This document shows, piece after piece, positions 19,841 to 23,737 of a stretch of 64,000 nt of DNA. A model generated the notes under the pieces. That model searched no databases. It was not told the DNA's origin and was given only the letters and a program-made list of their open reading frames with translations. The DNA comes from Clavibacter capsici (GTDB taxonomy: Bacteria; Actinomycetota; Actinomycetes; Actinomycetales; Microbacteriaceae). The stretch's first letter is position 1. Each line of letters opens with the position of its first letter. The position numbers and the translations under genes were made by a program. The stretch lies in assembly GCF_001280205.1 (NCBI RefSeq), contig NZ_CP012573.1, positions 2,480,001 through 2,544,000 on the forward strand. The letters are read 5' to 3'.

Positions 19841-20836
19841 CTACTTGGCGCCGACCGTGGCGGACGCGTTCGACTCGTACGACGTGTTGGTCGACTCGAA
19901 GAAGTTGACGAGCTGGAGCGTGTCGTTCGCCGTCGCCATCCACTTCGCCGGGTTGGAGACCTTGTACTCGGCCTCGAAGCCGAGCTCCTCGAGGCGGCGG
20001 TCGGCCAGGTACTTCACGTACTGGTTGATGTAGTTCGCGTTGAGGCCGAGGATGCCGTTCGGCAGGAGGTCCTTGTTGTACTGCTCCTCCATCTCGACGG
20101 CGTCGAGGATCATCTGCTTGATCTCGGCGGCGAACTCCTCCGTCTGCAGGTCAGGGTTCTCCTCGAGCACCGTGAGGATCAGGTTGATGCCGAACTTGAG
20201 GTGCAGCGACTCGTCGCGCACGATCCAGTCCATGAGCGAGCCGAAGTTGCGCAGCAGGTTCCGCTGGCGGAACGAGAGCGACACCATGAAGCCCGAGTAG
20301 AACCAGATGCCCTCGAGGATCACGTTGTACGCGACGAGGTTCCGGACGAAGTCCTTCTTGCCCTCGGTGGTGGTGATGTCGAGGGTCTGCTCGGTCATCC
20401 GCTTGATGAACTTGACCTCGAACTCCTCCTTGCGCGCCATCGACGGGATGTCGACGTGGGAGTTGTACGCGGCCTCGCGGTCGATCGGGAACGTCTCCAG
20501 GACGTACTCGAACGACATGCAGTGGTTCGCCTCCTCCCACATCTGCTTCGCCAGGTAGAGGTGGCACTCCGGGGCGTTGATGTAGGGGTAGACGCCGAAC
20601 GCGAGCGCCTTGTTCACGAGGAGCTCGTTCGGGTTGAAGTAGCTCATGAGGAACGTGATCGCGTGGCGCTCCTCGTCCGTCATCTTCTTGAAGTCCGCGA
20701 TGTCCTCGCCGAGCTGGATCTCGTTGGGGAACCACGTGTTGGCGACGGCCTGGTCGTACAGGTCCATGGCCCACTGGTAGTTGACGGGCTTGAGGAGGAG
20801 GCCCTCCTGGATTCCCGTGCCGAGGATCTTCGACAT
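19841..20836 (-). CDS. nrdB: ribonucleotide reductase beta subunit, class Ic-like (no radical Tyr)
   Basis: A 331-residue R2 subunit that supplies the oxidising equivalent for ribonucleotide reduction. The dimetal ligands can be assigned as E71, E102, H105, E175, E209 and H212. Two features differ from class Ia/Ib: the first ligand is Glu rather than Asp, and the residue four after H105, where the radical Tyr should be, is F109 (WEEANHCMSFEY). The ligand spacing equals that I recall for the Chlamydia trachomatis class Ic protein (E89, E120, H123, F127, E193, E227, H230), which uses a Mn(IV)/Fe(III) cofactor. A C-terminal Tyr (NTSYES) is available for radical transfer. It lies 93 bases after the short tail ORF. 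Confidence 0.93.
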   Translation of the reverse strand: MSKILGTGIQEGLLLKPVNYQWAMDLYDQAVANTWFPNEIQLGEDIADFKKMTDEERHAITFLMSYFNPNELLVNKALAFGVYPYINAPECHLYLAKQMWEEANHCMSFEYVLETFPIDREAAYNSHVDIPSMARKEEFEVKFIKRMTEQTLDITTTEGKKDFVRNLVAYNVILEGIWFYSGFMVSLSFRQRNLLRNFGSLMDWIVRDESLHLKFGINLILTVLEENPDLQTEEFAAEIKQMILDAVEMEEQYNKDLLPNGILGLNANYINQYVKYLADRRLEELGFEAEYKVSNPAKWMATANDTLQLVNFFESTNTSYESNASATVGAK

Positions 20837-20929: not shown

Positions 20930-21007
20930 CTACTGGCAGGAGTCGCACTGGAGCTCGTCCATGGGGTCCATGGGGACGACGTAGTCGCCGAACGTGTCGT
21001 CGTTCAT
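20930..21007 (-). CDS. 25-residue peptide carrying the CxxC tail expected at the NrdA C-terminus
   Basis: A 26-codon ORF starting at ATG 21007, one base overlapping the nrdA stop (TGATG). It begins MNDDTFGDYVVPMDPMDE and ends LQCDSCQ. A C-terminal Cys-x-x-Cys on an acidic flexible tail is what class I NrdA proteins use to re-reduce their active-site disulfide, and NrdA here has no cysteine in its own tail. The ATG has a near-ideal Shine-Dalgarno (GGGAGG, 9-base spacing) inside the nrdA coding sequence. It could be a separate protein acting in trans, the result of a -1 frameshift fusing it to NrdA, or a base-call error splitting one gene. Confidence 0.7.
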   Translation of the reverse strand: MNDDTFGDYVVPMDPMDELQCDSCQ

Positions 21008-23511
21008 CAGCGTGCACCTCCCACTCCGCCGAAGCCGAAGCCCTTGCGGGGCGCGGGAGCGGCCTCGGGCGCCGGGGCGTCCGCGGTCGCGGTGGATGCG
21101 GGGGCCGCCGACGCGGGGACGGCCGCGGGAGCGCCGCCGCCGAATCCGCCGAAGCCCTTGCGCTTGGTGCCGTCGGCGTCCTGGGACTTGTCGACCTTCA
21201 CGGTCGACTGCTCGGCCGTGTGGCGCGGCTTCATGTGCAGGTAGTACGTGGTCTTGACCCCGCGCTCCCAGCCGGCGAAGTAGATGTCCATCATGTCGCC
21301 GAGGTCGCGCGTCTCGAGGTACATGTTGCGGCTGATGGCCTGGTCGATCCACTTCTGCGCACGCGCGGCGACCTCGAGGAACGCGTACGGCGAGAGCTGG
21401 AAGCTCGTGCGGTACGTGGCCTTGACCGAGTCCGGGATGGCGGCGATGTTCTGGATGTCGCCCTGGCTGCGGAGGATGCTCTCCCGCACGGTCTCCCAGA
21501 GGCCGAGCTCCTGCAGGTCCTTCACCAGGTTCCGGTTGACCTCGAGGAACTTGCCCGAGGAGGTGGAGCGGCTGAAGATCTGCGAGAACTGCGGGTCGAG
21601 GCCGGGGGTGGTGCCGGCGACGAGGCCGATGGACGCGGTGGGCGCGATCGCCATGAGCGTCGCGTTGCGCATCCCGCCCTTGACCTTGGCGCGGAGCGCG
21701 TCCCAGTCGAGGCGCGTGGTGCGGTTGACCTTGACGGGCACGCCGCGGTCGGCCTCCATGAGCGCGATCGAGTCGAGCGGCACGAGGCCCTCCGACCAGC
21801 GGGATCCCTCGAAGTTCGGGTACGCGCCGCGCTCCTTCGCCAGGTCCGCCGACTCGTCGATGGCCGCGTAGGAGACGTGCTCCATGATCTCGTCGATCAG
21901 GTCGTACGACTCCTCGGACTCGTACGAGTACCCGAGCTTCTCCACGACGTCGGTGAAGCCCATGACGCCGAGGCCCACCGCGCGGTTCTGCTGGTTGGAG
22001 AAGTCCGCCTCCTTCACGCTGGAGCGCGTGATGTCGATGAGGTTGTCGAGCTGGCGCACCGCGAGGCGCGCGCTCTGCTCGATCTTCGCGAAGTCGATCT
22101 TGCCGTCGGAGAAGTGCTGCGACAGGTTGATGGACGCCAGGTTGCAGACGGAGACGTTGTCCTCGTCCTGCGGCAGCGTGATCTCGGTGCAGAGGTTCGA
22201 GAGGTGGATCGTGCCCGTGTTGTTGTTGAGGGCGCGGTTGTTGATCGTGTCCTTCCAGGTCAGCCACGGGTGGCTGGTGGTCTGGAGCGAGATGAGGATC
22301 GACTTGAACTGCTCCCGCGCCTTGATGCGCTTGAACATGCGGATCCGCCCGGCCTCGGCCTCGCCCACGTAGAACGCGTAGCGCTCCGAGAACGCCTTGC
22401 CGTACAGCTCGTTGAGGTCGGAGACCTCCAGCGGGTCGAAGAGGAACCAGTCCTCGTCGTCCTGGACGCGCTTCATGAACTCGTCGCTGATCCACACGGC
22501 CGTGTTGGCGGTGCGGGTGCGGCGGTACGGGTCGCCCGAGTTCTGGCGGAGGTCGAGGAACTCGGGGAAGTCGAGGTGCCAGTTCTCCATGTAGAAGCAC
22601 AGGGCGCCGAACTTCTTGCCGCCGCGGCTGACGGCGCGGAGCACCGAGTCGATGGTGTGCATGAACGGGATCGGGCCCGTGGAGGTGGTGTTGTTCGAGC
22701 GGATGGGCGAGCCCTGCGCGCGCAGCTTGGAGACGGAGAGGCCGATGCCGCCCGTGCCCTTCGTGAGCCACATGACGTCGCGCGTGGTCTTCGCGATGTG
22801 CTCGATGTCGTCCTGCATCTCCATGACGAAGCAGTTCGCGAGCTGCGGGTAGATGGTTCCCGCGTTGACGAGGGTGGAGCCGGCCGCGAGGTACTCGAGC
22901 TTCGACATCTTCTCGTAGAAGGCGATGGCCGTCTCGGTGGGGTTCTGCTCGTTGAGCGCGAGGCCCATCGCGATGCGCATCCAGAAGTACTGGGGCACCT
23001 CGAGGGCGTCGCCGTTGCGGCCCTTGATGCCGTAGCGGTTGTTCAGCGTGACGACGCCGATGTACTTCAGCAGCTCGTCGTGCGCCGGCTCGAGGGCCTG
23101 GGCGAGGCGCTCCAGGTCGAACAGCTGCACGAGGCGGGAGTCGAGGAGCATCTCGTCGACGCCGCGCTGGATGTTGCGGGCGAAGTGCTCCGCGTGGAGG
23201 CGCTTGAGCTCCTCGGGCGACGAGTAGTCGCCGAGGACGCGCTTGTAGATGGTCTTGAGGAGGAGGCGCGCGGCGACGGTGTCGAACGCCGGGTCGTCCT
23301 TCACGTTCTGGAGCGCGACCTGGATGACGGCCTCATCCAGCTGCTGCGTGGTGATCCCGTCGAAGAGGGTGATCTCCAGCTCGGACGCGATCTGCGTGAC
23401 CCAGCCGATGTTCTCGTCGAGGCCCTGCGTGGCGTCCTCGATGGCCAGGTTGATGCGGTTCGCGTCGTACGGCTCCCGCGTGCCGTCGCGCTTCACTACG
23501 GTGATGGACAC
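21007..23511 (-). CDS. nrdA: ribonucleotide reductase alpha subunit, class I, lacking its C-terminal Cys pair
   Basis: An 834-residue catalytic subunit converting NDPs to dNDPs. An N-terminal ATP-cone (about 1-90, VVKRDGTREPYDANRI) allows allosteric activity control. The active-site residues are present: C227 (LANCF), N439/C441/E443 (SNLCTE), C456 (VCNLAS) and the Tyr pair Y756-Y757 (TTYYLHM). After residue 780 the protein becomes an Ala/Pro/Gly linker with a repeated KGFGGFGGG / RKGFGFGGVGG element and stops without the usual cysteine pair. The start is GTG 23511 with AGGAG ahead of it. First gene of the operon nrdA - tail ORF - nrdB. Confidence 0.95.
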   Translation of the reverse strand: MSITVVKRDGTREPYDANRINLAIEDATQGLDENIGWVTQIASELEITLFDGITTQQLDEAVIQVALQNVKDDPAFDTVAARLLLKTIYKRVLGDYSSPEELKRLHAEHFARNIQRGVDEMLLDSRLVQLFDLERLAQALEPAHDELLKYIGVVTLNNRYGIKGRNGDALEVPQYFWMRIAMGLALNEQNPTETAIAFYEKMSKLEYLAAGSTLVNAGTIYPQLANCFVMEMQDDIEHIAKTTRDVMWLTKGTGGIGLSVSKLRAQGSPIRSNNTTSTGPIPFMHTIDSVLRAVSRGGKKFGALCFYMENWHLDFPEFLDLRQNSGDPYRRTRTANTAVWISDEFMKRVQDDEDWFLFDPLEVSDLNELYGKAFSERYAFYVGEAEAGRIRMFKRIKAREQFKSILISLQTTSHPWLTWKDTINNRALNNNTGTIHLSNLCTEITLPQDEDNVSVCNLASINLSQHFSDGKIDFAKIEQSARLAVRQLDNLIDITRSSVKEADFSNQQNRAVGLGVMGFTDVVEKLGYSYESEESYDLIDEIMEHVSYAAIDESADLAKERGAYPNFEGSRWSEGLVPLDSIALMEADRGVPVKVNRTTRLDWDALRAKVKGGMRNATLMAIAPTASIGLVAGTTPGLDPQFSQIFSRSTSSGKFLEVNRNLVKDLQELGLWETVRESILRSQGDIQNIAAIPDSVKATYRTSFQLSPYAFLEVAARAQKWIDQAISRNMYLETRDLGDMMDIYFAGWERGVKTTYYLHMKPRHTAEQSTVKVDKSQDADGTKRKGFGGFGGGAPAAVPASAAPASTATADAPAPEAAPAPRKGFGFGGVGGAR
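21017..21022 (-). promoter_or_regulatory. ribosome binding site for the NrdA-tail ORF
   Basis: GGGAGG within the last codons of nrdA, nine bases before ATG 21007. Its quality argues that the short ORF is translated on its own. Confidence 0.6.
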
Positions 23512-23689: not shown

Positions 23690-23705
23690 TCACTATATAT
23701 GCGGG
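23690..23705. promoter_or_regulatory. NrdR box 1
   Basis: TCACTATATATGCGGG resembles the NrdR consensus (acaCTATATATagtgt) in 10 of its first 11 positions. It overlaps the putative nrdA -10 element. NrdR is the ATP/dATP-sensing repressor of ribonucleotide reductase genes; its own gene is not in this window. Confidence 0.7.
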
Positions 23706-23722
23706 CCCCCGGCCAGGACCAA
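23694..23722 (-). promoter_or_regulatory. putative nrdA promoter
   Basis: Reading the minus strand, TTGGTC (23722-23717) is followed after 17 bases by TATATA (23699-23694). The -35 is a partial match and the -10 is good. Transcription would begin near 23687, giving a leader of about 175 bases ahead of GTG 23511. Confidence 0.5.
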
Positions 23723-23737
23723 CCCCATATGTAGTGG
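23722..23737. promoter_or_regulatory. NrdR box 2
   Basis: ACCCCATATGTAGTGG matches 12 of 16 consensus positions. It starts 32 bases from box 1, three helical turns, the spacing typical of paired NrdR boxes. Confidence 0.7.

What the first reader, a model, noticed from the sequence alone, without database searches (positions are those of the whole stretch)
20930..21022. NrdA's redox-active CxxC tail encoded as a separate 25-residue ORF
NrdA has all its active-site residues (C227, N439, C441, E443, C456, Y756-Y757) but no cysteine in its last 80 residues. Immediately after it, with a TGATG overlap, is a 26-codon ORF that starts with ATG and ends LQCDSCQ, which has the form of the missing C-terminal shuttle. 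This ORF has its own strong Shine-Dalgarno (GGGAGG, 9-base spacing). If translated independently, a peptide acting in trans would recycle the enzyme's active-site disulfide, an arrangement I do not know to be described. A programmed -1 frameshift producing a minority of tailed NrdA is a second possibility.
Basis: partly seen in the sequence, partly recalled or inferred. Interest (0 to 1): 0.85.

Follow-up and report, generated by a model that had tools for sequence, protein, structure and literature searches.

The report
RNR redox tail as separate peptide
In one family of bacteria the short cysteine tail that recharges the DNA-building-block enzyme ribonucleotide reductase has become a separate protein of about 25 residues with its own gene, and phages and plasmids carry that little gene too.

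Summary
In this Clavibacter window NrdA (21007-23511, minus strand) has cysteines only at 227, 305, 441 and 456. A 25-residue ORF (20930-21007) ending CDSCQ follows it.

It is not a frameshift or sequencing error. 106 of 109 readable Microbacteriaceae nrdA loci carry the separate peptide, in all three frames and at varying distances. In the other three its gene lies elsewhere in the genome. Relatives outside the family have the homologous tail fused to NrdA...CPVDPxERLQCESCQ. The split NrdAs form one clade, 99/100.

All 70 genomes with this NrdA encode the peptide, against 3 of 80 others. In 67 of the 70 an unlinked copy was listed, and each of these 67 has exactly one copy with the same paired NrdR-like boxes as nrdA. 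Clavibacter has three copies and one RNR barrel gene. 263 viral stretches and 18 plasmid records also match; 0 of 44 viral records searched encode an RNR barrel.

Best reading: a trans-acting dithiol shuttle that re-reduces NrdA. The chemistry is untested. Closest precedent: split class II NrdJab (PMC4520616).

The parts
21007..23511 (-). nrdA, catalytic subunit of class I ribonucleotide reductase, 834 aa, without C-terminal cysteines
   Evidence: NCBIfam NF005101 1731 bits (cut-off 988); Pfam ATP-cone, lgN and lgC domains; active-site residues and cysteine positions
20930..21007 (-). separate tail peptide ORF, 25 aa, MNDDTFGDYVVPMDPMDELQCDSCQ, overlapping the nrdA stop as TGATG
   Evidence: conserved family
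21017..21022 (-). Shine-Dalgarno-like GGGAGG, 9 bases before the peptide ATG
   Evidence: read directly from the sequence
19841..20836 (-). nrdB, radical-generating subunit, 331 aa
   Evidence: NCBIfam NF007186 408.8 bits (cut-off 237); Pfam PF00268
23722..23737 (-). NrdR-box-like site 1 upstream of nrdA
   Evidence: position; paired element seen upstream of nrdA across the family; model
23690..23705 (-). NrdR-box-like site 2, 16 bp from site 1
   Evidence: position; strict pattern of this box in 102 of 108 nrdA upstream regions

Best explanation
The ORF encodes a real, separately translated 25-residue protein: the detached redox tail of this NrdA. After each turnover the active-site cysteine pair (C227 and C456 here, by analogy with E. 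coli C225/C462, recalled) is a disulfide. The CDSC pair of the free peptide enters the active site, reduces that disulfide, leaves oxidised, and is re-reduced by thioredoxin or a NrdH/glutaredoxin-like protein. The conserved Y-x-VPxDPMDxL segment is probably the part that docks on NrdA. Shown by sequence: separate gene, homology to the fused tail, selection on the peptide, co-occurrence with tail-less NrdA, a second unlinked copy under the same NrdR-like promoter boxes, and plasmid and phage copies. Inferred: translation, binding to NrdA, and the thiol-disulfide exchange.
For: Homology: peptides align without internal gaps to fused tails of relatives; fused tails in 20 of 20 order-level relatives of 68-75% identity and in 17 of 17 readable class-level relatives of 71-75% identity, two more running off their contigs. 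One origin: 29 split rows form one clade, 99/100. Trans action: in 3 loci (L037, L058, L061) no peptide follows nrdA but one lies elsewhere, on another contig in two of them. Co-occurrence: 70 of 70 genomes with this NrdA against 3 of 80 others. Co-regulation: of 70 such genomes 67 have a listed unlinked copy, and all 67 have exactly one copy scoring at least 20 on a promoter model trained only on nrdA; best of 175 shuffles 6.2, best of 106 linked-peptide upstreams -1.4. nrdR is present. One gene with the RNR barrel domain in this genome.
Against: No direct proof of translation, binding or electron transfer. A free 25-mer loses the tether, so affinity or concentration must make up for it; unmeasured. 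One NrdA outside the family (L323, G635) also lacks tail cysteines and no peptide was detected there, so tail loss without a peptide may occur. 24 of 92 scored unlinked entries (one place counted twice) lack the boxes, and so do the 69 viral upstreams. In some phages the ORF sits beside lysis genes, which a DNA-precursor role does not explain. G113 has the peptide, with boxes (38.9), but no NrdA hit (genome 77% complete, 6% contaminated); G133 and G141 have weak, unresolved hits. About half of the 106 linked ORFs have only a weak Shine-Dalgarno match (4 bases in 45, none in 9).
Confidence: 0.88

Rival explanations
1. Programmed -1 frameshifting or bypassing makes some NrdA with the tail attached.
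For: In this window and in most relatives the peptide start lies at or just before the end of the nrdA stop (offset -1 or +2 in 80 of 106).
Against: The peptide is in each of the three frames relative to nrdA (89, 12, 5) and starts up to 61 bases after the stop. A start codon was found for all 106. Copies unlinked to nrdA were listed in 67 of 70 NrdA genomes and are the only copy found in some.
Confidence: 0.02
2. Sequencing error or a recently broken nrdA in this strain.
For: None beyond the short distance between the two frames.
Against: Same arrangement in all nine Clavibacter loci fetched and an equivalent one in 106 of 109 family loci; purifying selection on the peptide.
Confidence: 0.01
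3. The peptide binds NrdA or NrdB as an assembly factor, inhibitor or allosteric regulator and its cysteines bind metal or act as a switch rather than shuttling electrons.
For: The segment before the cysteines is nearly as conserved as the cysteines. Match number varies from 1 to 6 per genome at E 0.1 or less and viral records carry it without an RNR barrel, which would also suit a regulator.
Against: It is homologous to the tail that does this chemistry in fused enzymes (chemistry from PMC5704485 passages), the family NrdAs without a tail are one clade, and the C-x-S-C-Q end is invariant in 78 peptides.
Confidence: 0.08
4. The linked peptide is a leader or coupling ORF whose translation opens the nrdB start.
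For: It lies between nrdA and nrdB and overlaps the nrdA stop.
Against: Its protein sequence, not only its position, is conserved (pN/pS 0.24); the same kind of protein is encoded away from nrdA, with its own promoter boxes.
Confidence: 0.01

Closest known systems
Split class II RNR NrdJa-NrdJb of Pseudomonas aeruginosa (PMC4520616, PMC5704485 and PMC9669993; passages read of each)
   Same: Catalytic part and redox-cysteine part of an RNR are separate polypeptides; the smaller one mediates disulfide exchange and is needed in vivo. [quoted passage not shown]
   Different: There it is a B12-dependent class II enzyme and the smaller part is a 229-residue protein with a zinc-finger domain, in the same operon. 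Here it is a class I enzyme, the linked peptides are 21-57 residues, a further copy lies away from the operon, and phages and plasmids carry it.
Fused C-terminal CxxC tail of class I NrdA
   Same: Homology without internal gaps to the tail of the nearest relatives, ending C[DE]SCQ.
   Different: Not attached to NrdA; the cysteine before P-x-D-P in the fused tails is V, rarely I, in the family's free peptides, and two places before it stands Y, rarely F.
Split NrdA of Aeromonas phage Aeh1 (PMC2988022, passages read)
   Same: A NrdA made from two polypeptides that is fully functional.
   Different: [quoted passage not shown] it is not a detached redox tail and not a bacterial family-wide state.
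RNR with glutaredoxin fused to NrdB, Facklamia ignava (PMC6187632, search listing with start of abstract only)
   Same: Rearrangement of the RNR reductant module.
   Different: There the outside reductant is fused on; here the inner shuttle is cut off.

Membership tests
Class I RNR catalytic subunit (NrdA, NCBIfam NF005101) | barrel, N-terminal and ATP-cone domains and catalytic residues | tested here: met
Class I RNR catalytic subunit (NrdA, NCBIfam NF005101) | redox cysteine pair at the C-terminus of the same chain | tested here: not met
   no cysteine after residue 456 of 834; none in the last 80 residues in 109 of 109 readable family loci
Split RNR of the NrdJab type | catalytic part and redox-cysteine part encoded by separate genes | tested here: met
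Split RNR of the NrdJab type | class II, B12-dependent enzyme | tested here: not met
   class I NrdA with adjacent nrdB
Split RNR of the NrdJab type | redox part is a large domain with a zinc finger | tested here: not met
   25 aa; no Pfam family above its cut-off, no NCBIfam family at E 0.001
Split RNR of the NrdJab type | redox part carries out disulfide exchange and is essential in vivo | not testable with these tools
   needs enzyme assays and gene removal
Programmed frameshift gene | fixed relative frame with the two frames adjacent | tested here: not met
   three frames, mechanical start offsets -5 to +61, unlinked copies
NrdR regulon (unlinked tail gene) | pair of NrdR boxes about three helix turns apart upstream | tested here: met
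   one boxed unlinked copy in each of 67 genomes; spacing 35-36 on the model, equal to a 16-17 bp spacer; PMC12051234 passages give 15-17 bp as best. Box letters compared with a consensus from memory.
NrdR regulon (unlinked tail gene) | NrdR binds and represses | not testable with these tools
   nrdR gene present in the window's genome

The most novel reading that the evidence does not exclude
RNR in these Microbacteriaceae runs on a diffusible redox peptide of about 25 residues, so that enzyme output depends on peptide dose. The cell sets that dose through NrdR with a second gene, and phages and plasmids raise it by bringing their own copy: a minimal auxiliary metabolic gene that boosts the host's enzyme without encoding one. 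Some mobile elements even attach the tail to glutaredoxin-like or unrelated small proteins.
Probability: 0.5. Interest if true: 0.95.

Novelty: new variant of a known kind. Interest (0 to 1): 0.9.

Why it matters
The C-terminal cysteine tail of class I RNR is described as a flexible part of the catalytic chain. Here the only RNR barrel gene found in the genome encodes an enzyme without it, and the tail is a free peptide. That makes tail binding, exchange and recharging directly measurable by titration, which the fused enzyme does not allow. It is, as far as the searches here show, a split class I RNR in bacteria not yet in print, a very small conserved redox protein, and a gene overlooked by annotation (unannotated in three of four named phages, named as NrdB on one plasmid). 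If phages and plasmids use it to raise host dNTP supply, it is a new and very small kind of auxiliary metabolic gene.

Tried and rejected
Frameshift and sequencing error were rejected on the family data. Pfam and NCBIfam gave no family for the peptide; the two weak Pfam hits (DUF5816 E 0.042, a zinc-finger model E 0.75) are below cut-off. Named phages with a NrdA (3161 records, all under 60% identity) were not followed. A phylum-wide peptide search over 396 genomes gave three hits outside the own genome: one inside a 909-codon NrdA frame (G419) and two partial matches inside longer frames that read by eye like a succinate dehydrogenase iron-sulfur protein, set aside as chance. G635 was checked as a possible second tail-less lineage: no peptide found, while four members of its genus have matches inside frames of about 900 codons; left unexplained. 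The weak hits in G133 and G141 were not resolved. In one search I had sorted unlinked copies into two groups, which could bias the count of boxes; one search repeats it on the unlinked places listed (that list is cut, so weaker matches are missing). One search has one entry without a regex hit (L391), one place counted twice (L179/L393), and L388 may be a linked copy on a broken contig.

The claim that this is not in print rests on searches of an open-access PubMed Central library; subscription papers and preprint servers were not covered.

Full report
WHAT IS THERE. The window lies in a genome whose nearest named loci are Clavibacter (G000:C1:2480001-2544000). On the minus strand run nrdA (23511-21007), a 25-residue ORF (21007-20930) and nrdB (20836-19841). 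The small ORF begins in the nrdA stop codon (TGATG), has GGGAGG nine bases upstream, and ends in CDSCQ.

IS IT CONSERVED. One scan of genome contigs kept the best 80 of 478 confirmed relatives, and a family search over 150 genomes gave 29 further loci beside the own one. Of these 110 nrdA loci one runs off its contig. In the 109 others NrdA has no cysteine in its last 80 residues, and 106 have a separate small ORF after nrdA. Some loci of the two sources come from the same genome; there are 78 distinct peptides. Start offsets from the nrdA stop run from -5 to +61 and the frame relative to nrdA is 2 in 89, 0 in 12 and 1 in 5. Start choice was mechanical: 77 ATG, 28 GTG, 1 TTG. By the same script the Shine-Dalgarno match is 4 bases in 45, 5 in 33, 6-8 in 19 and none in 9, so the strong site of Clavibacter is not typical. 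The end reads [ED]-Y-x-V-P-x-D-P-M-D-x-L-Q-C-[DE]-S-C-Q in most; V, P, D, P, M, C, S, C and Q are invariant in 78 peptides. pN/pS over 17 codons is 0.24, against 0.20 for a 17-codon NrdA core control. All nine Clavibacter copies are identical in DNA, so selection cannot be measured inside the genus.

THREE TELLING EXCEPTIONS. L037 (Naasia lichenicola), L058 (a Homoserinimonas MAG) and L061 (a Cryobacterium MAG) have no peptide between nrdA and nrdB. Each genome has one elsewhere: for L058 on the same contig but about 200 kb away or more, for the other two on a different contig. No frameshift can join such parts.

A SECOND GENE. A peptide profile over the same 150 family genomes matched 73 at E 0.1 or less. 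The 70 genomes with this type of NrdA (73% identity or more, a few partial at contig ends) are all among them, against 3 of the 80 others (Fisher 9e-40, which ignores shared ancestry). Of the three, G113 is a strong hit in an incomplete, contaminated genome and carries the promoter boxes too, so its nrdA may simply be missing; G133 and G141 are weak. The 70 genomes hold 167 matches: 1 in 6 genomes, 2 in 42, 3 in 17, 4 in 1, 5 in 2, 6 in 2 (not every match was inspected). The usual second copy is unlinked, about 26-28 aa, of the form MDxxxxDTVGGYAVPVDPMDLLQCDSCQ. Clavibacter has three matches: the one in the window, one at G000:C1 starting at 2874887 on the minus strand, and one at C3:127898 on a 145.5 kb contig. 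It has one gene with the RNR barrel domain (class III NrdD was not searched for separately).

SHARED PROMOTER. Upstream of nrdA lies a paired element: the strict second-box pattern is in 102 of 108 upstream regions. A two-block model from 84 nonredundant nrdA promoters (the three exceptions left out) was applied to the peptide genes. In one search, 35 of 35 copies that I had grouped as chromosomal unlinked genes score 26.0-44.7 with the spacing of nrdA, while 15 that I had grouped as mobile-type, 69 viral and 106 linked upstreams have none; the best of 175 dinucleotide shuffles is 6.2. That grouping was made after seeing the sequences, so one search scored the unlinked places listed. Of 92 entries (one place twice) 68 score at least 20, none lies between 10 and 20, and 24 are below 10. 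By genome the result is sharp: 67 of the 70 NrdA genomes have a listed unlinked place, and each of the 67 has exactly one boxed copy. The three others (G012, G104, G118) had no unlinked place in the cut list. In the window the two 16-mers lie at 23722-23737 and 23690-23705, 16 bp apart. That geometry fits paired NrdR boxes: PMC12051234 passages give 15-17 bp as optimal and PMC9110341 passages about three helix turns. The box letters I compared with a consensus from memory. The genome has nrdR. So one unlinked tail gene per genome appears to be regulated with RNR.

WHERE IT CAME FROM. In the same order, 20 of 20 relatives of 68-75% identity (L111-L130) end in fused tails such as ACPVDPMERLQCESCQ, and nine at about 41% (L131-L139) in CEACQ. 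In the class sample 17 of 17 readable relatives of 71-75% identity are fused; two ran off their contigs. The peptides align to these tails with no internal gap; the first cysteine of CPxDP is V in the family's free forms, rarely I. In the order sample, hits outside the own genome lie inside long NrdA-type frames except G141, a family member with a weak hit. In a tree of 53 NrdA proteins (28 of the 109 split loci plus L184, 18 fused, 5 outgroup, 1 tail-less) the 29 split rows form one clade, 99/100. L323 (G635), tail-less with no peptide found, is a long branch and unexplained.

MOBILE COPIES. In IMG/VR 312 stretches matched the pattern and 263 were confirmed; the best 80 were fetched, and all 80 end in a C-x-x-C peptide. 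Within the stretches held, up to 4 kb on each side, 0 of 80 have a nrdA hit and 1 has nrdB. Of 44 records searched whole (the 40 fetched contigs of at least 15 kb and four named phages) 0 have an RNR barrel; contigs may be fragments, the four named phages are described as complete genomes. The named phages are Clavibacter phages CMP1 and CN1A, Pontimonas phage phiPsal1 and Pseudanabaena phage Pan2; in the first three the ORF is not annotated. Eighteen plasmid records match at E 10 or less: 14 Clavibacter, 3 Leifsonia, 1 Gryllotalpicola. On a Leifsonia plasmid the product is named 'ribonucleotide-diphosphate reductase subunit beta', though the CDS is 102 bases long. Some copies end longer proteins: two glutaredoxin-like ones (L144, L190; Pfam Glutaredoxin E 0.009 and 0.14, below cut-off) and four without any family above its cut-off. 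Whether each extra copy is on a mobile element was not tested; some lie on long contigs.

MECHANISM. In class I RNRs a C-terminal cysteine pair on a flexible tail is believed to re-reduce the active site and is itself reduced by thioredoxin or glutaredoxin (PMC5704485, passages). The simplest reading is that this pair now arrives on a free peptide. What is shown: a separate, selected gene, homologous to that tail, kept wherever this NrdA was found in the family sample, and at unlinked loci under RNR-like promoters. What is inferred: translation, docking through YxVPxDPMDxL, and the exchange itself. A regulator role is the main rival, about 0.08.

NOVELTY. [quoted passage not shown] The Aeh1 phage split (PMC2988022, passages) is of another kind. 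PMC9669993 and PMC9531940 (passages only) do not mention this case in what I read. Searches showed no report of a free class I tail peptide. I rate it a new variant of a known kind (split RNR), at the far end of that scale.

Noticed in passing
L141, L142, L143: The unlinked tail gene lies next to two short genes (about 130-160 aa) that look by eye like a MaoC-type dehydratase pair; not scanned with Pfam.
   Followed up: partly
L296 4001-4066, L299 4001-4057, L198, L250: In some phages the tail ORF follows lysis genes: just after the annotated holin in phiPsal1 and CMP1 and after endolysin-family genes in L198 and L250 (7 neighbour proteins scanned: 2 endolysin, 1 endonuclease VII, 1 helicase, 2 unknown, 1 no hit). 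No explanation.
   Followed up: partly
L345 1527-3845 (plasmid pCM2): The plasmid copy lies between an ArdC-like gene and a single-stranded DNA-binding protein gene, as might suit DNA synthesis after plasmid entry.
   Followed up: no
L144 1252-1557 and L190: Glutaredoxin-like proteins that by eye lack the usual CxxC site but carry the RNR tail at their C-terminus.
   Followed up: partly
L298 4002-4085 (Pseudanabaena phage Pan2): Free peptide ending FACPNDPADLVSCESCQ, which keeps the extra cysteine of the fused tails; its true host deserves a check.
   Followed up: no
L300 4983-5084: A 102-base CDS carrying the tail peptide is named ribonucleotide-diphosphate reductase subunit beta in the record, probably a spread misannotation.
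   Followed up: no
L323 (G635): A NrdA of 64% identity outside the family with no cysteine in its last 80 residues, no nrdB found in the stretch held and no free peptide detected.
   Followed up: partly
L178, L190, L194; in part L179, L187: Several extra copies share an upstream segment of the form ccggtattccacg ... ccg(a/g)aaggca, possibly a common promoter or repeat.
   Followed up: no
L268 2919-4054: A virus-classified contig with nrdB (81% identity to the window's) directly followed by the tail peptide; no RNR barrel in the whole record.
   Followed up: partly
L177 7542-8600: Near the third tail copy on contig C3 lies a 352-aa ORF that looks by eye like a secreted trypsin-like serine protease; not scanned.
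   Followed up: no
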